Part shown: one piece after another, positions 848-13,292 of the stretch | Numbering within the stretch: position 1 is the stretch's first letter | Layout: each line of letters opens with the position of its first letter | Source: Prochlorococcus sp. AG-418-I20 | Lineage (GTDB): Bacteria > Cyanobacteriota > Cyanobacteriia > PCC-6307 > Cyanobiaceae | Reading direction: 5' to 3' | Assembly: GCA_003214175.1 (NCBI GenBank) | Contig: QCLZ01000003.1 | Location: 24,001 to 88,000 of the forward strand | DNA: 64,000 nucleotides | The notes under the pieces: generated by a model | Database searches by the model: none | The model's input: only the letters and a program-made list of their open reading frames with translations | Told to the model about the DNA's origin: nothing | Translations under genes and position numbers: made by a program

Positions 848-893
848 TCGGGGCGACAGGATTCGAACCTGCGACCTAGTGCTCCCAAAGCAC
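848..893 (-). repeat. Orphan 3' fragment of tRNA-Pro (distal att site)
   Basis: This is a perfect 46-bp match to 4056-4101: discriminator base, 3' acceptor strand, T arm, variable region and anticodon arm up to the loop. The 5' half of a tRNA is missing, so it is not a functional tRNA. At its inner edge the sequence forms a perfect inverted repeat TAGTGCT-N5-AGCACTA (877-895) centred on the anticodon loop. A longer inverted pair ACCTAGTGCT / AGCACTAGGT lies at 874-883 and 910-919. Confidence 0.85.
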
Positions 894-982: not shown

Positions 983-1002
983 TTTGTCCGCAATTTGTCC
1001 GC
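983..1002. repeat. Tandem TTTGTCCGC repeat, left end of element
   Basis: Two TTTGTCCGC copies (983-991 and 994-1002) are separated by AA. The same two-copy array with spacer TA occurs at 3961-3980 in the same orientation near the other end. Spacing is 11 bp, one helical turn, in both. I infer arm-type binding sites for an integrase or excisionase. Confidence 0.6.
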
Positions 1003-1028: not shown

Positions 1029-1409
1029 TTAATAACTCACTTCTTGAAGTTTTAGTATGGTCATTATAAAAAAGATTGCAGATAATAAAAACATTACAAT
1101 TCTTCTCGTCGGCTTATTTGGTATTCCGGTACTCGCTAATAAAATTAAAAAAGTCGGAGTAGTAAATCCTATAGAATAAAAAACCCCTCCTTTTGATGTA
1201 ATTAAAAGCCAATTTACAAACCAAAAGCCAAGAGCATATAACCTATCATTTTTTTTTCCAGAATTTTTTTTGGCTGCATTAGATTCTTTTTTTTGATTAG
1301 AAGTAGTTAAAGGTTCATTTCTTTCTTCTGTAATATTTATTGGAGAACCACAGTTTTTACAAAATTTCTGATTTGCTTCTAATTTTGTTCCACATTCAAT
1401 ACAAAACAT
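1029..1409 (-). CDS. Zinc-ribbon small membrane protein
   Basis: A 126-residue protein starting with a zinc ribbon at its very N-terminus (C3, C6, C17, C20), then a polar Lys/Asn-rich linker to about residue 55, then about three hydrophobic segments (near 58-73, 77-93 and 103-120). The ribbon should face the cytoplasm. It is transcribed away from the three plus-strand genes of the island, with only 63 bp between the starts, so the two units probably share a promoter region. The ribbon closely resembles that of the protein at 3387-3935 (same C3/C6/C17/C20 spacing). Specific function is unknown; a membrane-anchored partner of the other ribbon proteins is an inference. Confidence 0.8.
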   Translation of the reverse strand: MFCIECGTKLEANQKFCKNCGSPINITEERNEPLTTSNQKKESNAAKKNSGKKNDRLYALGFWFVNWLLITSKGGVFYSIGFTTPTFLILLASTGIPNKPTRRIVMFLLSAIFFIMTILKLQEVSY

Positions 1410-1472
1410 TATGAAATTTTGAACCTTATTTTTTTCTTAAATATAATATGAAAAATCTTTTTCAAAATATTA

Positions 1473-2417
1473 ATGACAGCAAATAGTAATGAAAATGATC
1501 CACTATTAGCTCAAAAAAGACTACTTGGAACTTTAAAAAATATTGTTAACAAGGCCGAAAACTATTTCGAGGAAGATGAAGGAGAATCTCTATCTACTAA
1601 TAAACAAGATCCTGCATATAAGTTTATAAAAAGCAAAACGAAATCAAATCCAAATTGGAAGTCTGAATTAAATGATGAGGAAAAAGAATATCTTAAAAAT
1701 CATCCTAGTCCTATTTTTGAACGACAAGATGCTTTTAATCAAAGATTCTTAGCTCATAAGAAATTTAAGAAAGGGAAAGGTGAACTTATAATTAATGGCA
1801 TAAAACAGAATGAACTAGGTGAACAAAGCGAAAAGCATAAAGAGATTAGTAATTTAGAGAACAAAACCAACTCAACGCCAATTAATGACGAGTCATACAA
1901 AAATGTCATCAAAAATCATGCCGTTTTAAATTGTTCTAATTGTGGATCCTCTATCAATAAAAATGATCTATTTTGTGGAGAATGTGGGTTTAAATTAGAA
2001 GTAATAAAACCACCTCGAGAGAAAGGAGAGAACAAGGAAGAAAATTTAATAGAGTTCAAAAAAGAAAAAAATATCGAAAATAAAATTTATAAGAAATCCT
2101 CAGAATCTAAAAAAGAAGAAAAGGCCCAAGAAAATAAGGTTAATGAGATAGCAACAAAAAAACTAAGCTACAACAATTTACCCATTGAAACTCTAAAAAT
2201 ATTAAAGACTTTTTTTGATGATCAACTTATAGTTGAAAGCGAATATAATATCCTCCGAAAGTCAGCATTAAATCTCTCTAATAGTAATGAATTAATTCCA
2301 TCTATTAAATCTATCTCTAGAGAAAAATTAGCTGAATTAAAAGTTCTTTTCGATCAAGAACTAATTCATAAGGAAGAATATGATCTTTTGAGAAGAAATT
2401 TATTATTTGAAAAATAA
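1473..2417 (+). CDS. Zinc-ribbon protein with two C-terminal SHOCT-like repeats
   Basis: A 314-residue, highly charged protein without signal peptide or membrane segment. A central zinc ribbon (C154, C157, C168, C171) sits between long Lys/Glu/Asn-rich linkers. The C-terminus has two copies of a roughly 28-residue motif (about 238-265 and 285-312) of the form L-x2-L-x2-hydrophobic-F-x-D/E-x-L-I-x4-E-Y-x2-L-R. This matches the SHOCT (short C-terminal) domain pattern, known as an oligomerisation or targeting module on otherwise unrelated proteins. It is first in a three-gene run; the metallopeptidase gene starts 5 bp after its stop. A scaffold or adaptor role is inferred only. SHOCT recognition is by eye. 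Confidence 0.8.
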   Translation: MTANSNENDPLLAQKRLLGTLKNIVNKAENYFEEDEGESLSTNKQDPAYKFIKSKTKSNPNWKSELNDEEKEYLKNHPSPIFERQDAFNQRFLAHKKFKKGKGELIINGIKQNELGEQSEKHKEISNLENKTNSTPINDESYKNVIKNHAVLNCSNCGSSINKNDLFCGECGFKLEVIKPPREKGENKEENLIEFKKEKNIENKIYKKSSESKKEEKAQENKVNEIATKKLSYNNLPIETLKILKTFFDDQLIVESEYNILRKSALNLSNSNELIPSIKSISREKLAELKVLFDQELIHKEEYDLLRRNLLFEK

Positions 2418-2422
2418 ATAAT

Positions 2423-3370
2423 ATGGTAAAAAAAATACTCAAAGACCTAAAACCAGAAGAGTATGAACATCCTTTAGATAGGTCTGCTTTGGAAAAGCTA
2501 GAATCTATTCCTGGGATAAGGGCAATTATTAGTCAAATTTGGGATAAATTCTTGGATAGGCTTTATTATTTTGAATCTACAGGATCCAGAATTCAAATAA
2601 ATAAAGAAAATTATTCTGAACTTTTTAATATTTATTTAGAAGCCTGTTCAATTCTTGATATGAATCAGGTTCCTCCTCTTTATTTAGATAATAATCCTCG
2701 TATTAATGCATTCGCTCATGGTGTAAAAAGGCCCTATATTGGGATTTCTTATGGAGCTATTGAAAGATTAGAAAAAGATGAATTACTTTTTGTATTAGCA
2801 CATGAATTGGGGCATATAAAAAGTGAACATGTACTTTATAGGGATGTTGCTGAAAATTTCAAAGCAATTGTTGAAATAGCTAGTCAAATGAGCTTAGGGA
2901 TAGCAGGTTTAGTAGGAGGTAGTTTTCAAGTTGCATTAAGGTATTGGTGGCGAATGTCAGAATTTACTTCTGATAGGGCAGGTTTGCTTGCTTGCCAAGA
3001 TAGTAAGGTCGCTATCAGAACCATCATAAAAGTTTCTGGGTTGCCTGTTAATCACATAAATGTAGAAAATTTTGAGAAATCATTCTTAAAACAGGCAAAT
3101 GATTTTGAAGATTTTGATTATGGAAAGTTGAACAAACTTATTAGATTTTGGAGTACTGCAGATAATACACATCCTTGGTCTGTTTTAAGAGCCTCTGAGA
3201 TATTAAAATGGGAAGCTTCTGAAGAATTTGAAAATATTTTAAAAAGAGAAAAAAAGGTAAGTTCTGAATTGATATCAGAGAATTTTCACTTTTGCTCACA
3301 ATGTGGGAATAAGTTGCAAATGTCCCAAAAATTCTGTGGTAATTGTGGAAACAAGGTCGAAATAAAATAA
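2423..3370 (+). CDS. M48-family metallopeptidase with C-terminal zinc ribbon
   Basis: A 315-residue protein with the HExxH zinc site (H127, E128, H131). Fifty residues later comes the M48-type third-ligand motif, E180 in E-F-T-S-D-R-A, and then T-H-P at about 249-251 with R256, as in M48 peptidases. The family hydrolyses peptide bonds, often in misfolded or membrane proteins. Unlike HtpX it has no obvious transmembrane helices, so it is probably cytosolic or recruited to the membrane. The last 25 residues form a zinc ribbon (C291, C294, C305, C308) like that in the three other island proteins. It is the middle gene of the operon (5 bp after the SHOCT gene, 16 bp before the TPR gene). The protease call is firm; substrate is unknown. 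Confidence 0.88.
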   Translation: MVKKILKDLKPEEYEHPLDRSALEKLESIPGIRAIISQIWDKFLDRLYYFESTGSRIQINKENYSELFNIYLEACSILDMNQVPPLYLDNNPRINAFAHGVKRPYIGISYGAIERLEKDELLFVLAHELGHIKSEHVLYRDVAENFKAIVEIASQMSLGIAGLVGGSFQVALRYWWRMSEFTSDRAGLLACQDSKVAIRTIIKVSGLPVNHINVENFEKSFLKQANDFEDFDYGKLNKLIRFWSTADNTHPWSVLRASEILKWEASEEFENILKREKKVSSELISENFHFCSQCGNKLQMSQKFCGNCGNKVEIK

Positions 3371-3386
3371 TTTAACTTTTAATTTT

Positions 3387-3935
3387 ATGTTTTGTACTCA
3401 ATGCGGTCAAAAATATTCATCTAATGATCGTTTTTGTACAAAATGTGGAGCATCAATTAATTGTTTAAAAGAGAAAAAAGTTCCTTCATCTTTTAAAGAT
3501 GGCAGTAGGGAAAAAGAATTTAAGGAAACTATAGAAAGAGCGTCTTTCTTTCATGATAGAGGGATAAAAAAAATGATTGAAAAAGATTACAAAGGGGCAA
3601 AAGAAGATTTTGAAAAGGTTATTGAAATCTACCCAAATGCCCCATTAATTGAAGAGACATATCTAAATCTTGGGGTGATGTATCTTAGGCTTGGGAATGA
3701 ATCAAAAGCTTTATCTGCCACAAAAAAGGCACTTGAGATTAATCCAAATTATTTAGACGCCAAAAATAATCTCAATAGAATGCTTAATCAAAAAAAAAGA
3801 ATCCTTAATCAGAAAAAATTTGATTCTTCAATAAGTTTTATAAGTAGGGTCTTTGCTGTGCCAGCAGGGATAGTTATCTTTTCACTTTTAAGAATTTTTC
3901 TTAAAGAACTCATGCAAGCATTAACCAACCAATAA
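3387..3935 (+). CDS. Zinc-ribbon and TPR protein with C-terminal membrane segment
   Basis: A 182-residue protein opening with a zinc ribbon (C3, C6, C17, C20). Residues about 48-135 contain at least two TPR-like helical pairs, with the typical A-x2-D-F-x-K-hydrophobic-I-E-hydrophobic-x-P-N and L-N-L-G-x2-Y patterns. A hydrophobic segment at about 152-172 would make it tail-anchored, with ribbon and TPRs in the cytoplasm. It is last in the zinc-ribbon operon. TPRs bind partner proteins, so recruiting clients or the M48 protease to the membrane is plausible but not shown. Confidence 0.82.
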   Translation: MFCTQCGQKYSSNDRFCTKCGASINCLKEKKVPSSFKDGSREKEFKETIERASFFHDRGIKKMIEKDYKGAKEDFEKVIEIYPNAPLIEETYLNLGVMYLRLGNESKALSATKKALEINPNYLDAKNNLNRMLNQKKRILNQKKFDSSISFISRVFAVPAGIVIFSLLRIFLKELMQALTNQ

Positions 3936-3960: not shown

Positions 3961-3980
3961 TTTGTCCGCTATTTGTCCGC
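3961..3980. repeat. Tandem TTTGTCCGC repeat, right end of element
   Basis: TTTGTCCGC occurs at 3961-3969 and 3972-3980. It mirrors the array at 983-1002 in sequence, spacing and orientation, differing only in one spacer base. An inverted GCGGACA follows at 3988-3994. The array lies 75 bp from the tRNA-Pro att copy. An integrase arm site is inferred. Confidence 0.6.
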
Positions 3981-4006: not shown

Positions 4007-4032
4007 AAAAAAGCGAGTCTGGGTAACTCGCT
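4007..4032 (-). terminator. Intrinsic terminator of tRNA-Pro
   Basis: AGCGAGT (4012-4018) pairs with ACTCGCT (4026-4032) around a 7-base loop. On the minus strand the hairpin is followed by six T. It lies just downstream of the 3' end of tRNA-Pro and, if the element model is right, is carried by the element. Confidence 0.75.
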
Positions 4033-4055
4033 AGTATGACTTGGTTTTGATTGAG

Positions 4056-4129
4056 TCGGGGCGACAGGATTCGAACCTGCGACCTAGTGCTCCCAAAGCA
4101 CCCGCGCTACCAAGCTGCGCCACGCCCCG
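4056..4129 (-). tRNA. tRNA-Pro (anticodon UGG)
   Basis: A full cloverleaf on the minus strand: acceptor CGGGGCG/CGCCCCG with discriminator A; D arm; anticodon stem GGTGC/GCACT (one G-U pair) around loop TTTGGGA, giving anticodon TGG; T arm with GGTTCGAATCC. Length is 74 without an encoded CCA. Its 3' 46 bp are duplicated at 848-893, making it the target of an integrated element. Confidence 0.96.
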
Positions 4130-4524: not shown

Positions 4525-5037
4525 ATGAAAACATTAGAGAGTTTGATTAAGACATATAATGACTTTCCAAAAAAAGGTGTAGCTTTCAAAGACGTTCTTG
4601 GAATTATTCAAGATACCGAAGTGTTTAGGGAACTAATCTTTAAAATGTCTTCACATCAGTTGATAAGAGATTCTGAGGCCATAATTTCAATAGACGCAAG
4701 AGGTTTTCTTTTTGGCTCGGCAATTTCGTTTCAGGCATCTAAACCAATGATAGTTGCTAGAAAACCTGGTAAACTACCAGGTAATTTAATTCAGAAAAAC
4801 TACAATTTAGAATACGGAAAAAATTCTCTATCAATCCAAAAAGAAGCTCTTAACAAATTTAGTTCTTATGCAATTGTTGATGATCTTTTAGCTACTGGCG
4901 GCACAGTGGACTGTATAGCTAGATTAATTAATGAAAATGGTAAGAAAATATTAGGGTTATTAACTGTTATAGAATTAGAAAGCTTAAATGGAAGGTCTAA
5001 ATTTGATTTCCCCGTCGAATCAATAATAAAAATGTAA
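4525..5037 (+). CDS. apt: Adenine phosphoribosyltransferase
   Basis: Salvages adenine with PRPP to give AMP and diphosphate in the cytosol. The 170-residue length is normal for the family. Visible hallmarks are the N-terminal D-F-P-K-K-G-V-x-F-K-D segment (about 13-23), G-F-L-F-G (60-64) in the adenine-site loop region, and the PRPP-binding loop V-D-D-L-L-A-T-G-G-T (118-127). It is a lone gene on the plus strand just beyond the tRNA-Pro island, with a 395-bp upstream gap, so it probably has its own promoter. The ATG at 4525 gives the expected N-terminus. Confidence 0.95.
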   Translation: MKTLESLIKTYNDFPKKGVAFKDVLGIIQDTEVFRELIFKMSSHQLIRDSEAIISIDARGFLFGSAISFQASKPMIVARKPGKLPGNLIQKNYNLEYGKNSLSIQKEALNKFSSYAIVDDLLATGGTVDCIARLINENGKKILGLLTVIELESLNGRSKFDFPVESIIKM

Positions 5038-5101
5038 TAGGTATATTTAATGCAATAGGAGTTATATTTATTTTATTTTAGATATTAAAAAATTTTAAAA
5101 T

Positions 5102-5206
5102 TTATATCAAACCCATTGATCCTGCTGTAAAACCTACTATCAAAAAGAATGCAAATTCAGTCAAATCTCTGGGCATAGAATTGACAATAATACTTAGTTG
5201 AGTCAT
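5102..5206 (-). CDS. Single-pass 34-residue membrane peptide
   Basis: Starts M-T-Q-L-S and contains one hydrophobic helix (about residues 18-33). The reading frame is preceded on the minus strand by GAGGAG, about 13 bases before ATG. Size and layout resemble the tiny single-helix subunits of photosystems, cytochrome b6f or NDH-1, but I cannot match it to a named subunit. It is too short for ordinary ORF calling. It is convergent with apt. Confidence 0.5.
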   Translation of the reverse strand: MTQLSIIVNSMPRDLTEFAFFLIVGFTAGSMGLI

Positions 5207-5433
5207 TTAACCTTGTGCTCCTCAGGTTTATTTATTTTCAAAAAATATAACTAAGAATATTTTTTATTGAGGTTACAACCTTTATTTTTTTCTTTTTTCT
5301 AAAGATTTCAAAAATTTAAATAGTCTTTAATTTAAGAAATTGCAAATTACTTGAATCACAAAATAACAATAATTGGGGTAAATTTTCTTTAATGCTATAT
5401 TTTAAGTTAATTACTTTTAAAGAAGAAACTTGA

Positions 5434-5601
5434 ATGGACTATAAAAAAAAATCTTTGAAAAGTCTTAATAGAAATGAATGTTATGAGGAGATAGATACTA
5501 GGCTTGCTTCTGGATGGTATGTAGATGTGACGGCAGGTAACAAGAAAAAGAAATATAAAACTAAAGAGGTAGTTTTTAAAGTATCTAAAAAGTCTTCATA
5601 A
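5434..5601 (+). CDS. Small basic hypothetical protein (55 residues)
   Basis: Starts ATG GAC TAT and ends TAA at 5601. It is Lys-rich, with no membrane segment and a Trp-Tyr-Val-Asp core followed by a basic stretch. AAAGAAG lies about 10 bases upstream as a weak ribosome site. Composition is protein-like and the frame fits the gap between apt and the porins. Such short basic proteins are common in Prochlorococcus; function unknown. Confidence 0.45.
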   Translation: MDYKKKSLKSLNRNECYEEIDTRLASGWYVDVTAGNKKKKYKTKEVVFKVSKKSS

Positions 5602-5890
5602 ATCCAACTAAAAATTTTTTTGCAATTTTTCACAATTACTCATAATATATTTTCGAATATTTATTAATCCATTTATAAAAATATGGATGCTTTTCATTAA
5701 ATATACAAATTACAAATTACTAGATTTAATAACTTACTGATTTTGTTAGTGAACGATGAATTTATGAAGATTTTGAATGTATAGATTTTTAAAGTGGCAC
5801 AGAATATCGGGAAATGTATCAGCTTACACTTGATTTTGTTAAGCAATATACATTATCTTAAGGTGTCCTTTAAATTCGTGTGAGGAATTT

Positions 5891-7003
5891 ATGAAGCTTT
5901 TTAAAAGCTTGCTTGTAGCGCCAGCGACATTAGGATTATTAGCTCCTATGGCTGCTACAGCAAATGAAGTTACTATTAGTGACTTTGCCCCTGCTGAAGA
6001 ACTTGCTATTACTAATAGCCGTGTAGATGGTTTAGAAGCAAGGTTAAACAACTTTGAAGCTGGTTCATTCTCTGAAACAACTTCAGCATCATTCTCAGCT
6101 GATTTTGCAATCGGTACAGTTGATGGAACATCTGGTGAAGAAGCAGTAGGAACTGCTTATGGTTTCCAGATTGACCTATCAACAAGTTTCACTGGAGAAG
6201 ATTCATTTGATGTTTCTATAGATGCTGGTACAACAGATGCTAATTCAGTATTAGATGAGCTAGACCTTAATGATGCTAGCGATACATTAACAGTCGATGG
6301 TATTTCATATACTTTCCCTCTTGGCGACAAGATGACAGTTTTTGTTGGTGATAGCGTTGACGGAAGTTCTCTTTACAGCACAGCTTGTGTATATGGTGGA
6401 GTAACTGACGTTCTTGATGATTGTGGAAATCAATTCTCTGCAATGGACGGTGGTGCAGGTACTGCAGCTGGTGCTAGCTTTGAAATCGGCAACGGATTCA
6501 CTGCTGCTATTGGCTATACAGGAGACGGTTCAAGTGACAGCTCTACTAATGGTTTAATGACCAAAGAGGGTCTTGATGTATATGGTGGACAACTAACATA
6601 TACTGGTGACTCATATGGTGCATCTGTAACTTACGCACTTGCAGAAACAAGTTCTACTGCTGAGACAACATACTGGGCACTTAACGGATACTGGACTCCA
6701 GAAGAAACAGGAACTGCTGTTCCTTCAATCAGTGTTGGATACGAAATGGGAGATCCTTCAACTGGTGTAGATACAGAGCAATGGTTCGTTGGACTTCAGT
6801 GGGATGAAATAGGAGCAGGAACACTTGGTGCTGCTGTTGGTACAAAAGGTGCTATCAATGAAGGAGCTACTGAGTACTATCAGTACGAAGCTTTCTATAG
6901 CTACCCAGTAAATGATTCAATGACAGTTACACCTTTGATCTATGTTGCTGAAGATTCAACTGATTCAACAGGTATCATGGTTAAAACATCATTTAGCTTC
7001 TAA
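5891..7003 (+). CDS. Outer-membrane porin-like protein, copy 1
   Basis: A 370-residue precursor with a signal peptide (about 1-24, cut after A-T-A). A short amphipathic helix (40-56, N-S-R-V-D-G-L-E-A-R-L) follows, then a Gly/Ser/Thr-rich stretch with alternating hydrophobic residues typical of a beta-barrel, ending in Phe as outer-membrane proteins do. C166 and C178 could form a disulfide in a loop. It is strongly acidic and lacks the long SLH domain of larger cyanobacterial SomA-type porins; the short helix may be its remnant. The ribosome site GAGG lies 5 bases before ATG. It differs from copy 2 at only four residues (29, 30, 251, 276). Likely role: passive uptake of small solutes across the outer membrane. 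Confidence 0.85.
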   Translation: MKLFKSLLVAPATLGLLAPMAATANEVTISDFAPAEELAITNSRVDGLEARLNNFEAGSFSETTSASFSADFAIGTVDGTSGEEAVGTAYGFQIDLSTSFTGEDSFDVSIDAGTTDANSVLDELDLNDASDTLTVDGISYTFPLGDKMTVFVGDSVDGSSLYSTACVYGGVTDVLDDCGNQFSAMDGGAGTAAGASFEIGNGFTAAIGYTGDGSSDSSTNGLMTKEGLDVYGGQLTYTGDSYGASVTYALAETSSTAETTYWALNGYWTPEETGTAVPSISVGYEMGDPSTGVDTEQWFVGLQWDEIGAGTLGAAVGTKGAINEGATEYYQYEAFYSYPVNDSMTVTPLIYVAEDSTDSTGIMVKTSFSF

Positions 7004-7165: not shown

Positions 7166-8278
7166 ATGAAGCTTTTTAAAAGCTTGCTTGTAGCGCCAGC
7201 GACATTAGGATTATTAGCTCCTATGGCTGCTACAGCAAACGAAGTTACTGTTAATGACTTTGCCCCTGCTGAAGAACTTGCTATTACTAATAGCCGTGTA
7301 GATGGTTTAGAAGCAAGGTTAAACAACTTTGAAGCTGGTTCATTCTCTGAAACAACTTCAGCATCATTCTCAGCTGATTTTGCAATCGGTACAGTTGATG
7401 GAACATCTGGTGAAGAAGCAGTAGGAACTGCTTATGGTTTCCAGATTGACCTATCAACAAGTTTCACTGGAGAAGATTCATTTGATGTTTCTATAGATGC
7501 TGGTACAACAGATGCTAATTCAGTATTAGATGAGCTAGACCTTAATGATGCTAGCGATACATTAACAGTCGATGGTATTTCATATACTTTCCCTCTTGGC
7601 GACAAGATGACAGTTTTTGTTGGTGATAGCGTTGACGGAAGTTCTCTTTACAGCACAGCTTGTGTATATGGTGGAGTAACTGACGTTCTTGATGATTGTG
7701 GAAATCAATTCTCTGCAATGGACGGTGGTGCAGGTACTGCAGCTGGTGCTAGCTTTGAAATCGGCAACGGATTCACTGCTGCTATTGGCTATACAGGAGA
7801 CGGTTCAAGTGACAGCTCTACTAATGGTTTAATGACCAAAGAGGGTCTTGATGTATATGGTGGACAACTAACATATACTGGTGACTCATATGGTGCATCT
7901 GTAACTTACGCACTTAAAGAAACAAGTTCTACTGCTGAGACAACATACTGGGCACTTAACGGATACTGGACTCCAGAAGAAACAGGAACTTCTGTTCCTT
8001 CAATCAGTGTTGGATACGAAATGGGAGATCCTTCAACTGGTGTAGATACAGAGCAATGGTTCGTTGGACTTCAGTGGGATGAAATAGGAGCAGGAACACT
8101 TGGTGCTGCTGTTGGTACAAAAGGTGCTATCAATGAAGGAGCTACTGAGTACTATCAGTACGAAGCTTTCTATAGCTACCCAGTAAATGATTCAATGACA
8201 GTTACACCTTTGATCTATGTTGCTGAAGATTCAACTGATTCAACAGGTATCATGGTTAAAACATCATTTAGCTTCTAA
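7166..8278 (+). CDS. Outer-membrane porin-like protein, copy 2
   Basis: A 370-residue near-identical tandem copy of the gene at 5891, differing at residues 29 (Val), 30 (Asn), 251 (Lys instead of Ala) and 276 (Ser). It has the same signal peptide, short helix, barrel-like body and terminal Phe. The ribosome site GAGG lies 7 bases before ATG rather than 5, and the upstream region is unrelated to that of copy 1, so the copies may be expressed differently. The Ala-to-Lys change at 251 adds a positive charge, perhaps in a loop or pore-facing strand. Same inferred function: outer-membrane solute channel. Confidence 0.85.
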   Translation: MKLFKSLLVAPATLGLLAPMAATANEVTVNDFAPAEELAITNSRVDGLEARLNNFEAGSFSETTSASFSADFAIGTVDGTSGEEAVGTAYGFQIDLSTSFTGEDSFDVSIDAGTTDANSVLDELDLNDASDTLTVDGISYTFPLGDKMTVFVGDSVDGSSLYSTACVYGGVTDVLDDCGNQFSAMDGGAGTAAGASFEIGNGFTAAIGYTGDGSSDSSTNGLMTKEGLDVYGGQLTYTGDSYGASVTYALKETSSTAETTYWALNGYWTPEETGTSVPSISVGYEMGDPSTGVDTEQWFVGLQWDEIGAGTLGAAVGTKGAINEGATEYYQYEAFYSYPVNDSMTVTPLIYVAEDSTDSTGIMVKTSFSF

Positions 8279-11201: not shown

Positions 11202-12746
11202 ATGAAATCTAATAAGGGTAATTTCGATGCAATTATTATTGGCTCAGGAATAGGCGGGTTAGTAACTGCATCGCAATTAGCAGCAAAGGGAGCTCAAGTT
11301 TTAGTTCTTGAGAAATATATTATTCCAGGAGGAAGTGGAGGCTCTTTCAAGAGAAAAGGTTATACCTTTGATGTTGGGGCTTCAATGATATTTGGATTTG
11401 GAGATAAAGGGTATACTAATTTACTTACTCGCGCATTAAAGGATGTAAATGAAAAATGCGAAACTATTCCTGATCCTGTGCAACTGGAATATCATTTGCC
11501 AAATAAATTTGATATTTCAGTAGATAAAAATTATGAGAAATTTATAAACAAATTATCAGCTACTTTTCCTAAGGAAAAAGAAGGTATAAGGAAATTCTAC
11601 GATACTTGTTCAAATGTATTTAGATGCTTGGATTCAATGCCTCTTTTATCAATAGAGGATCCAAGTTATCTTTTTAAAGTTTTCTTTAAATCCCCACTAT
11701 CTTGTTTAGGCTTAGCCAGATGGCTACCTGTAAATGCTGGGGATGTTGCTAGAAAGTTTATAAAAGATCCCGAGCTCTTAAGGTTTATAGATATAGAATG
11801 TTTTTGTTGGTCAGTAATGCCTGCTCTTAAAACTCCTATGATTAATGCAGGGATGGTTTTTACCGATAGGCATGTTGGCGGTATAAATTATCCAAGAGGT
11901 GGGGTAGGAAAGATTGCAGAGAAATTAGTTTCAGGTATTGAAAAATTAGGTAGTAAAATTCGTTATAAAGCTAATGTAACTGAAATACTAATAAAGGAAG
12001 AGAAAGCAGTAGGAGTTAGGCTTTCAAATGGTGAAGAAATTTATTCAAATTTTATTGTATCTAATTCCACTCGATGGGACACCTTTGGTCTAGAAGATAA
12101 AAAGAAAGGATTAATTGCAAGTAAGAATGTTCCAAAAAGTGAATATAAATGGGCAGAGACCTACAAACCCTCCCCGTCTTTTGTCTCAATTCATCTTGGA
12201 GTAGAGAAAAATGTAATAAAGGATAATTTTAATTGCCATCATATAATTGTTGAGAATTGGGATAATTTAGAAAGTGAAAAGGGAGTTATTTTTGTCTCTA
12301 TACCTACTCTGCTTGACTCATCTTTAGCTCCAGAGGGTAAACATATCGTACATGCATTTACGCCTTCATCAATGAATGAATGGGAAGGTCTATCAAGGAA
12401 AGAATACCTTCAAAAGAAAGATGAATACTTTTCCTTCATCATTGAGAGGATTTCAACTATCCTTCCAAATCTACAAAAAAATATTGAACATAAAGAAATT
12501 GGTACACCAAAAACCCATAAAAAGTTTCTTGGAAGGTATCAAGGTAGTTATGGACCTATTCCTAGTCAAAAGTTACTTGGACTTTTGCCAATGCCTTTTA
12601 ATAGTACAAAGATTAAAAACCTTTATTGCGTTGGAGATTCATGTTTCCCAGGGCAAGGCCTAAATGCAGTAGCTTTTAGTGGATACGCTTGCGCTCATAA
12701 GATAGGTGCAAAATTAAAGATAAATAGTTTTAAATTACCAAACTAA
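11202..12746 (+). CDS. crtH: Carotene (prolycopene) isomerase CrtH
   Basis: An FAD-dependent isomerase turning poly-cis lycopene into all-trans lycopene in carotenoid synthesis. The frame opens at 11142 inside trmFO, but the ATG at 11202 (M-K-S-N-K-G-N-F-D) places the dinucleotide fold I-I-I-G-S-G-I-G-G-L at the usual distance, giving 514 residues. It has E-K-Y-I-I-P-G-G-S-G-G-S, G-Y-T-F-D-V-G-A-S and a C-terminal L-Y-C-V-G-D-S-C-F-P-G-Q-G stretch typical of CrtISO. It could be confused with CrtI-type desaturases, but P-G-G-S-G-G-S and the C-terminus favour CrtH. Confidence 0.9.
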   Translation: MKSNKGNFDAIIIGSGIGGLVTASQLAAKGAQVLVLEKYIIPGGSGGSFKRKGYTFDVGASMIFGFGDKGYTNLLTRALKDVNEKCETIPDPVQLEYHLPNKFDISVDKNYEKFINKLSATFPKEKEGIRKFYDTCSNVFRCLDSMPLLSIEDPSYLFKVFFKSPLSCLGLARWLPVNAGDVARKFIKDPELLRFIDIECFCWSVMPALKTPMINAGMVFTDRHVGGINYPRGGVGKIAEKLVSGIEKLGSKIRYKANVTEILIKEEKAVGVRLSNGEEIYSNFIVSNSTRWDTFGLEDKKKGLIASKNVPKSEYKWAETYKPSPSFVSIHLGVEKNVIKDNFNCHHIIVENWDNLESEKGVIFVSIPTLLDSSLAPEGKHIVHAFTPSSMNEWEGLSRKEYLQKKDEYFSFIIERISTILPNLQKNIEHKEIGTPKTHKKFLGRYQGSYGPIPSQKLLGLLPMPFNSTKIKNLYCVGDSCFPGQGLNAVAFSGYACAHKIGAKLKINSFKLPN

Positions 12747-12764
12747 ATAGGGCTTTATAAAATT

Positions 12765-13292
12765 ATGGAAAAGTTTAAAACTCTTTTTTTTGTAAAAAGT
12801 TCATTAATTTCTCTATACCTAGCACTTACAATTCCAATACCATTTATTTCAATTGATAGATTAAAAAATATATCTTTTTTTATTTTCATACTAGGAGTGT
12901 ATTTAATTACAATGCTCACAAGTGATTACGTGGTGACTTGTGATAAAAAGATTTCATACAAAACTAGCAAAATTTCAAAATTTTTTGGGAGAAATAGTTG
13001 GGATATTCTTTGGAAAGATATTAAATTAATTCAATCCTTACCCACTAGTCAGGGAAGTAAAGTCTATTACTTTAATACTAGTAAAGGTGATAATTTTCTT
13101 GTCCCACAAAGGATTGAGAATTTTGAGGAATTTTTATTAATAATTTCTAAAAAAACTGGAATAGATGTTGCAAATATATCTTACATTTCACCTTTATGGA
13201 CTTATAAAGTATTGACACTAATATCATTTTTAATGATTATTGGGGAAATTTATGCTTTTAAATATCAGATATTATCGACGCTAAATCTATAG
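12765..13292 (+). CDS. Hypothetical membrane protein, possible PH-like domain
   Basis: A 175-residue protein with two N-terminal hydrophobic helices (about 10-26 and 33-51) and one near the C-terminus (about 148-166). Between them is a roughly 80-residue soluble part with beta-strand-like alternation (Y-V-V-T-C-D-K-K-I-S-Y, W-K-D-I-K-L-I) that resembles a bacterial PH-like domain. It follows crtH by 18 bp, and its last 28 bp overlap the 3' end of the convergent response-regulator gene. Function unknown. Confidence 0.7.
   Translation: MEKFKTLFFVKSSLISLYLALTIPIPFISIDRLKNISFFIFILGVYLITMLTSDYVVTCDKKISYKTSKISKFFGRNSWDILWKDIKLIQSLPTSQGSKVYYFNTSKGDNFLVPQRIENFEEFLLIISKKTGIDVANISYISPLWTYKVLTLISFLMIIGEIYAFKYQILSTLNL

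What the first reader, a model, noticed from the sequence alone, without database searches (positions are those of the whole stretch)
1029..3935. Four-gene island where every protein carries the same zinc ribbon, including an M48 protease
The ribbon (C-x2-C, 10 residues, C-x2-C) is N-terminal in two proteins, central in one and C-terminal in the fourth. The rest of each protein is unrelated: membrane helices, SHOCT-like repeats, M48 peptidase, TPR with tail anchor. A shared tag on a protease, a scaffold and two membrane proteins suggests one assembled complex, perhaps a membrane-recruited proteolytic stress or defence device. I know of no described system with this make-up.
Basis: partly seen in the sequence, partly recalled or inferred. 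Interest (0 to 1): 0.88.

Follow-up and report, generated by a model that had tools for sequence, protein, structure and literature searches.

The report
Ribbon-tagged protease set in tRNA cassette
A tiny ocean cyanobacterium carries, in what looks like a mobile gene cassette next to a tRNA gene, a protease and three partner proteins that all bear the same kind of small zinc-binding tag; related cells carry the set with parts swapped, which suggests a plug-in protein-cleaning machine at the membrane.

Summary
In detail: all four proteins carry C-x2-C-x10-C-x2-C Zn_Ribbon_1 domains, the only four matches under E 1e-5 in this 1.5-Mb Prochlorococcus-like genome. The genes fill one 3.2-kb cassette between a 46-bp tRNA-Pro repeat and the intact tRNA-Pro gene, in a tandem array of cassettes. 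Of 266 genomes of the genus, 12 carry the M48-ribbon gene; in 11 at least one neighbour also carries a ribbon (seven ribbon genes in G394), the twelfth is 5'-cut. Partners vary (membrane proteins, SHOCT-like scaffold, TPR, DnaJ); in two cases ribbon DNA sits on a different gene body. In other phyla too, ribbon-M48s have ribbon neighbours more often than plain ones (7/21 against 1/45). Ribbons within a cluster are not more alike than between clusters. Most likely a membrane-docked protease/chaperone quality-control set recruited through ribbons; assembly, zinc binding, substrates and mobility are inferred. Defence is unsupported. Closest known: ribbon-bearing PspA-YdjGHI systems and HtpX/BepA proteases; neither membership is met.

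The parts
848..893 (-). 46-bp copy of the 3' part of tRNA-Pro: left border (repeat core) of the cassette
   Evidence: 100% identical to window 4056-4101; one of 12 core positions in G000:C3:1-30000, the intact gene counted
983..1002 (+). left pair of TTTGTCCGC words at 11-bp spacing
   Evidence: same word at the right end
1029..1409 (-). ribbon + membrane protein (126 aa, N-terminal ribbon, two hydrophobic segments, TGI.NK..R family)
1338..1406 (-). ribbon of the membrane protein
   Evidence: C3:25338-25406, E 8.4e-8
1410..1472 (.). 63-bp divergent intergenic stretch; promoter-like TTGAAC-17-TATAAT on + at 1419-1447, but the number of such sites in the region is at chance
1473..2417 (+). SHOCT-like scaffold protein (314 aa, central ribbon, two C-terminal SHOCT-like repeats by eye)
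1932..1997 (+). ribbon of the SHOCT-like protein
   Evidence: C3:25932-25997, E 7.7e-6
2423..3370 (+). M48 metallopeptidase (315 aa) with C-terminal ribbon; no strong hydrophobic segment
2801..2815 (+). HELGH zinc-binding motif (residues 127-131)
   Evidence: H127, E128, H131 and D184 invariant, E180 at least 90% in 42 sequences
3290..3358 (+). ribbon of the M48 protein
   Evidence: C3:27290-27358, E 6.5e-7
3387..3935 (+). ribbon-TPR protein with a C-terminal hydrophobic segment (182 aa; residues 155-173)
3390..3455 (+). ribbon of the TPR protein
   Evidence: C3:27390-27455, E 1.3e-8
3961..3980 (+). right pair of TTTGTCCGC words at 11-bp spacing
4012..4032 (-). terminator-like hairpin in the stretch that is repeated in front of other cores of the array
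   Evidence: 2 such sites found, 1.7 expected
4055..4129 (-). intact tRNA-Pro (UGG): right border of the cassette

Best explanation
A horizontally exchanged, membrane-docked protein quality-control set. The M48 protease is cytosolic (no strong membrane segment or signal seen) and reaches the inner face of the membrane because its C-terminal ribbon docks with ribbons of two membrane proteins (ribbon-TM and tail-anchored ribbon-TPR) and of a SHOCT-like scaffold. TPR, or in relatives a membrane DnaJ protein, brings clients or DnaK. It would cut damaged or misfolded membrane-associated proteins under stress. Shown: gene content, co-occurrence, intact catalytic motif and predicted M48 fold, different bodies behind the same ribbon DNA, cassette borders. 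Inferred: zinc binding, ribbon-ribbon docking, membrane recruitment, substrates, stress role, mobility of the cassette.
For: The four ribbon matches under E 1e-5 in the genome are these four genes. In the genus 11 of 12 M48-ribbon genes (266 genomes searched) have a ribbon neighbour; the 12th is 5'-cut. By eye, 10 of those 11 sets include a ribbon protein with membrane segments (all but G395). G394 has seven ribbon genes in 6 kb. G210, of another genus, has four adjacent ribbon genes with relatives of the membrane and SHOCT-like proteins but no M48 match. A Ycf66-DnaJ membrane protein with a ribbon lies in the next cassette in G320 and in the same cassette in G365, a link to chaperone work. 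Its ribbon DNA is 87% identical to a SHOCT-gene ribbon, while the homologue in the own genome has no ribbon; in G320 the ribbon of the membrane gene is kept and the membrane part replaced. Outside Prochlorococcus 7 of 21 ribbon-M48s have a ribbon neighbour against 1 of 45 plain ones, Fisher p 9e-4, relatedness not corrected. In two Riflebacteria loci tested, M48 is followed by a Band-7/SPFH protein ending in ribbons. Fold: best matches are M48/M56 proteases such as BepA and ZMPSTE24. Precedent: YdjG/H/I recruit PspA to the membrane in B. subtilis (PMC8581546, passages); YdjG and its Band-7 partner carry ribbons (PMC11237479, passages).
Against: No interaction, expression or phenotype data. Ribbons within a cluster are not more alike than between clusters, so no specific docking code is visible. 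A tested SHOCT domain did not oligomerise (PMC3581485, passages). In G395, G326, G457 and G469 only two ribbon genes were seen, so scaffold and TPR are dispensable. Ribbons also occur alone: 12 of 266 genus genomes have one ribbon match and no M48-ribbon gene (not examined), and most of the 24 family genomes with a ribbon have one only. 14 of 21 ribbon-M48s outside Prochlorococcus have no ribbon neighbour. Ribbon exchange could be neutral recombination.
Confidence: 0.45

Rival explanations
1. The ribbons are thiol/zinc switches rather than docking tags: oxidative or metal stress strips zinc from all four proteins at once and so turns protease and adaptors on or off together.
For: Four tetra-Cys sites on one operon-like set and on varied partners; a shared sensor would give the same make-up as a shared dock.
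Against: No regulator or redox enzyme recognised in the cassette; PMC3581485 says ribbons of this kind bind nucleic acids and proteins (passage).
Confidence: 0.18
2. Clustering without a complex: ribbon coding DNA is spread among neighbouring genes by recombination or gene conversion and has no common function.
For: Ribbon DNA shared by unlike genes: DnaJ/SHOCT 81-87%, G210 membrane/AIK2 gene 80%, against a mean of 54%. Within-cluster ribbons are otherwise no more alike.
Against: Most unlike-gene ribbon pairs are only about 54% identical in DNA, so recent copying explains few of them; the association of ribbon-M48 with ribbon neighbours holds in other phyla; M48 catalytic residues are kept.
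Confidence: 0.17
3. An anti-phage or abortive-infection device carried in a variable island.
For: Place in a variable cassette array and patchy distribution: 12 of 266 genus genomes.
Against: No PADLOC match above 14.6 bits in 10 proteins; no nuclease, nucleotide cyclase or known sensor recognised in the cassette.
Confidence: 0.1
4. The set serves the mobile element itself, for example by cutting a recombinase or repressor to time excision.
For: It fills a whole cassette.
Against: Other cassettes of the array lack it, and in G394, G395, G272 and G326 no tRNA-Pro core with at most 4 mismatches was found around it (G326 has one with 6).
Confidence: 0.05

Closest known systems
PspA-YdjGHI (ydjFGHI) membrane-stress system of Bacillus subtilis and ribbon/SHOCT-bearing PSP relatives (PMC8581546, PMC11237479: passages read)
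   Same: Several proteins of one locus carry ribbons; membrane proteins recruit a soluble partner to the membrane; SHOCT-like domains and, in one PSP variant, a membrane-associated metallopeptidase occur.
   Different: No PspA, SPFH/Band-7 or TPM match in the seven proteins scanned in and around the cassette; the catalytic partner is an M48 protease; the set lies in a tRNA-Pro cassette.
M48 proteases HtpX, BepA/YfgC, Ste24/ZMPSTE24
   Same: M48 motif and predicted fold: VIA Z 10.9 to BepA 6ait, 9.9 to ZMPSTE24, 7.1 to the HtpX domain.
   Different: HtpX NCBIfam cut-offs far from reached (41.6 of 285 bits); not fused to TPR as BepA is; no strong hydrophobic segment; has a C-terminal ribbon.
Tycheposons and other tRNA-targeted elements of Prochlorococcus (Hackl et al. 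2023, not held; described in PMC10872708, passages, and PMC10187409, one section and passages)
   Same: Cargo between copies of a tRNA 3' end, in an array at a tRNA gene.
   Different: 3.2 kb and without a recombinase of its own; looks non-autonomous.
Plain YEHPLD-type M48 peptidases of other cyanobacteria and bacteria
   Same: Same peptidase family, up to 44% identical in the best segment.
   Different: 48 of the 80 loci show no C-terminal ribbon by the pattern (three of them, L052, L065 and L084, still align to the ribbon end of the query); plain ones rarely have a ribbon neighbour (1 of 45).

Membership tests
Peptidase family M48 | HExxH with a third ligand E and a following D | tested here: met
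   HELGH 127-131, E180, D184; invariant or at least 90% in 42 sequences; PF01435 75.9 bits, cut-off 20.3
Peptidase family M48 | M48 fold | tested here: met
   AF2 model pLDDT 84.8; top VIA rows 3c37 Z 11.2, BepA 10.9, ZMPSTE24 9.9; Foldseek alone reaches E 5e-3 at best, none under 1e-3
HtpX | NCBIfam HtpX equivalog score | tested here: not met
   best 41.6 bits, cut-off 285
BepA/YfgC | M48 and TPR on one chain | tested here: not met
   TPR is a separate protein
PspA-YdjGHI system | PspA and SPFH (YdjI-like) genes in the locus | tested here: not met
   Pfam scan of the four genes and three neighbouring ORFs shows neither; the rest of the genome was not scanned for them
PspA-YdjGHI system | membrane protein with N-terminal ribbon | tested here: met
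   window 1029-1409
SHOCT domain | Pfam SHOCT score over its cut-off | tested here: inconclusive
   SHOCT_2 15.6 of 24 bits in the window protein, 17.0 in G210, 17.3 in G394
Tycheposon | flanked by a tRNA gene and its partial copy | tested here: met
   intact tRNA-Pro 4055-4129 and 46-bp copy 848-893
Tycheposon | tyrosine recombinase in the element and 4-200 kb size (as given in PMC10872708) | tested here: not met
   no such match in the cassette; one PF00589 match in the genome, at C1:247633-248082; cassette 3.2 kb
Known anti-phage defence systems | match to a PADLOC-DB model | tested here: not met
   best 14.6 bits among 10 proteins
Zn_Ribbon_1 (PF13240) | curated cut-off 25 bits | tested here: met
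   31.4, 27.6 and 33.3 bits; the SHOCT-like protein 23.5 there and 27.4 in the genome search

The most novel reading that the evidence does not exclude
The zinc ribbon acts as an exchangeable docking tag: a bacterial plug-in code by which unlike proteins (protease, TPR, DnaJ, scaffolds, several membrane anchors) are recruited into one membrane complex, with ribbon DNA itself passed between genes and the whole set traded as tRNA cassettes in the ocean's most abundant phototroph.
Probability: 0.33. Interest if true: 0.82.

Novelty: new variant of a known kind. Interest (0 to 1): 0.63.

Why it matters
Prochlorococcus genomes are streamlined; a whole protease set carried as a 2-3.2-kb cassette, with constant tags and changing bodies, would show how a multi-protein complex can be assembled from exchangeable parts. 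It also ties small ribbon and SHOCT-like domains, whose role is mostly unexplained, to one testable job: docking of proteolysis and chaperones at the membrane.

Tried and rejected
Coincidence of a common domain: rejected. 26 of 266 genus genomes hold a PF13240 match at E<=3e-4; 42 of the 55 matches lie in 13 genomes with two or more, and in each of those 13 they lie on one contig within 5 kb (sums and positions by eye). Eleven of the 13 have the M48-ribbon gene, two (G305, G371) do not; 13 genomes have a single match, one of them the cut M48 gene of G359. A cluster-specific ribbon sequence: tested and not found (24 of 25 ribbons used, one with 11-residue spacing dropped).

Phage or viral carriage: searches (M48; SHOCT-like; TPR) found no relative in viral contigs; the membrane protein was not tried. 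(exact cassette-end pattern) none. (M48 in phages) two short matches, 28-34% of the query, E 7e-5 and 2e-4. Plasmids were not searched. These tools may leave out records very near the window's genome. Defence library. PDB by sequence: one HtpX domain and one match to the ribbon end (9sfa); nothing.

A divergent promoter was sought, but site numbers are at chance (16 found, 14.6 expected). A tree of 42 M48 sequences puts the picocyanobacterial ribbon-M48s in two starred groups (L013 beside the first, not starred) whose relation is unresolved; one or two acquisitions cannot be told. VIA barely tests the ribbon end of the model (rows span residues 17-276).

Literature: searches (ribbon + SHOCT + M48; ribbon + M48 + metallopeptidase) gave 0 papers; (Prochlorococcus + zinc ribbon) 4 papers, seen as a listing only and by title not on this subject; three papers were read in passages. 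That the system is not in print rests on these searches of the open library alone; Hackl et al. 2023 is not held.

Rows dropped: one search used 72 of 80 loci (in 8 the simple gene caller lost the M48 gene); one search left out L022 (stop codon), L065 and L084 of the list tried, and neither list used all 80 loci; one search counts 31 cassettes: words found at 20 left ends, 17 right ends and both ends of 16, only the last being tested for agreement.
Full report
What is there. Four ORFs at 1029-3935 each carry one C-x2-C-x10-C-x2-C ribbon: an N-terminal ribbon before membrane segments (1029-1409, minus), a central ribbon before two SHOCT-like repeats (1473-2417; the repeats by eye, Pfam SHOCT_2 only E 0.019), a C-terminal ribbon behind an M48 peptidase (2423-3370), and an N-terminal ribbon before TPR repeats and a C-terminal hydrophobic segment (3387-3935). 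The last three run in one direction with gaps of 5 and 16 bases; the first is divergent. In the genome (1.5 Mb, 24 contigs, 95.6% complete) PF13240 has four matches under E 1e-5, all in these four genes; two others are weak (E 0.04 and 0.08). PF01435 finds two M48 genes in the genome, and both lie in the array described next (the other is L003:11934-12827).

The frame is a cassette. An intact tRNA-Pro gene lies at 4055-4129. Its 3' 46 bases are repeated exactly at 848-893, and G000:C3:1-30000 holds 12 core positions, the intact gene included, with different small genes between them. The four genes fill the last cassette, 3208 bp from core to core. The same unit is a whole cassette of 3209, 3187 and 3129 bp in L010 (G320), L011 (G261) and G369. 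Near both ends of many cassettes lie two 9-base words at 11-base spacing. Of 31 cassettes in eight genomes, words were found at both ends of 16, and in 16 of 16 the left and right words agree within one mismatch (shuffled mean 5.8, 0 of 10,000 shuffles as high; 9 of 9 distinct word pairs, shuffled mean 2.9), while words differ between cassettes. This is what arm-type sites of element-specific integrases would look like (inference). A stretch of tRNA-Pro plus the apt gene matches 39 of 41 genus genomes, often at several places over the tRNA part; some of those matches are apt alone. No recombinase is in the cassette; the own genome has one PF00589 match elsewhere, and in L010 a 407-aa gene with a sub-threshold integrase match (E 0.0025) and a phage-capsid gene (E 3.1e-37) follow the array.

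Co-occurrence in the family. In 251 genomes the M48-ribbon gene is in 3, the full-length ribbon-membrane family in 3 (two further genomes match by ribbon only), the SHOCT-ribbon gene by its alignment in 1 (G210 has a shorter relative), and full-length ribbon-TPR-TM in 2 (the 46 other genomes match over the TPR part in the rows listed, and that list is cut). A PF13240 match at E<=1e-4 is in 24 of 251; the genomes with three or more are G000, G184, G228 and G210, one has two on different contigs (G073), the other 19 have one, mostly in a frame of about 620 residues. G228 has ribbon-TM, a protein with ribbons at both ends, M48-ribbon and a 69-aa ribbon-TM protein; G184 has a ribbon-TM protein, a three-ribbon membrane protein, M48-ribbon and ribbon-TPR-TM; G210 has four adjacent ribbon genes and no M48 match.

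Co-occurrence in the genus. Of 266 genomes searched, 12 have the M48-ribbon gene. Read by eye (G000): G000, G320, G369 and G261 have the full four; G394 has seven ribbon genes in 6 kb, with only small ribbon-less ORFs of 74 and 103 aa among them; G365 has M48, a ribbon-DUF4234 membrane protein and a ribbon-DnaJ protein in one cassette that ends at an intact tRNA-Pro gene; G457, G469 and G326 have M48 and a ribbon-DUF4234 or like protein; G395 M48 and a 180-aa ribbon protein without a clear membrane segment; G272 M48 and a 94-aa ribbon-TM protein; G359 only an M48 gene whose frame lacks its first third. Eight of the 12 lie between tRNA-Pro cores (G000, G320, G369, G261, G365, G457, G469, G359). 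Five of these are the same records as loci, judged by equal contig lengths (37606, 30071, 545159, 390212, 21708), so searches are not independent. Over the genus 26 of 266 genomes have a PF13240 match at E<=3e-4; 42 of 55 matches lie in 13 genomes with two or more, each set within 5 kb; 13 genomes have one. So ribbons also occur alone, and those 12 lone genes without an M48-ribbon gene were not examined.

Swapped bodies. In L010 the ribbon part of the membrane gene (74 nt) is 85% identical to the window gene, and the rest shows no similarity at the threshold used; its membrane part instead resembles that of a double-ribbon protein of G394 (by eye). The Ycf66-DnaJ gene of L010 has a ribbon that the homologue in the own genome (L003:13674-14258) lacks; its ribbon DNA is 87% identical to the SHOCT-gene ribbon of L011, 81% to that of L010 and 72.5% to the window's, against a mean of 54.3% (sd 5.9, maximum 79.7, n=143) for pairs of unlike genes without the DnaJ gene. 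The TPR part is missing in G228 and G394 while ribbon and tail segment seem to remain (by eye). Against a special code: ribbons inside a cluster are no more alike than between clusters (0.196 against 0.178; 414 of 2000 shuffles as high).

Beyond picocyanobacteria. Leaving out six Prochlorococcus loci, ribbon-M48s have an adjacent ribbon gene in 7 of 21 loci, plain ones in 1 of 45 (Fisher p 9e-4); immediate neighbours carry ribbons in 8 of 128 cases against 1 of 432 genes three or more places away (p 4.6e-5). Loci share ancestry, so these p-values are too small. In Riflebacteria loci a plain M48 gene is followed by a Band-7/SPFH protein with C-terminal ribbons (L040 and L046 tested; L048, L051 and L054 only by their ribbons).

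The protease. The AF2 model (42 sequences, pLDDT 84.8, pTM 0.86) resembles M48/M56 proteases; Foldseek alone gives nothing under E 1e-3. The linker before the ribbon is of low confidence. There is no strong hydrophobic segment (one at 1.4 on the Kyte-Doolittle scale, residues 148-166).

Reading. The simplest account is a cytosolic M48 protease brought to the membrane through ribbons, with TPR or DnaJ partners handling clients. Precedents are YdjG/YdjH/YdjI recruiting PspA (PMC8581546, passages), the note that YdjG and its Band-7 partner carry ribbons and that a PSP variant has a metallopeptidase and a SHOCT-like gene (PMC11237479, passages), and an SPFH protein that works with membrane proteases (PMC2636767, one passage). 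A caution is the negative oligomerisation test of a SHOCT domain (PMC3581485, passages). Defence was not supported. Docking itself is untested.

Noticed in passing
L004/L003 (G000:C3:1-28000), L159, L160, L161, L165, L167, L168: Cassettes of the tRNA-Pro array carry matched, cassette-specific pairs of 9-base words at 11-base spacing at both ends (16 of 16 with words at both ends, of 31 cassettes), like arm-type sites of different integrases.
   Followed up: partly
L003:617, 954, 7698, 7994, 9804, 10489, 13132, 14660: Eight copies of a 49-bp element (GATTGACAGTCGATC... then, in several, a terminator-like hairpin), some directly before start codons of small genes of the array.
   Followed up: no
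L003:11934-12827: The only other M48 gene found in the genome lies in another cassette of the same array; by eye it has an N-terminal hydrophobic stretch and no ribbon.
   Followed up: no
window 5891-7003 and 7166-8278: Two nearly identical 370-aa genes in tandem, porin-like by eye.
   Followed up: no
L010:9685-10908 and 11645-13027: A divergent integrase-like gene (PF00589 below cut-off) and an HK97-type capsid gene (Phage_capsid E 3.1e-37) beside the array in AG-670-O13, perhaps a satellite or prophage remnant.
   Followed up: partly
L121:7050-7706, 4931-5935; L012:3530-4333: A shared domain (AI.AA...GEI..S..D) without Pfam match at E 0.05, together with a ribbon in these three proteins.
   Followed up: partly
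L008:2377-2500 and 5233-5345: In G228 the ribbon set is flanked, by eye, by direct repeats of about 110 bp with a different paired word (TTTACTCAAAC), and one degenerate tRNA-Pro core was found.
   Followed up: no
L169:6134-6724: G359 carries an M48-ribbon gene whose frame lacks the first third, without ribbon neighbours, between tRNA-Pro cores: perhaps a decaying copy.
   Followed up: no
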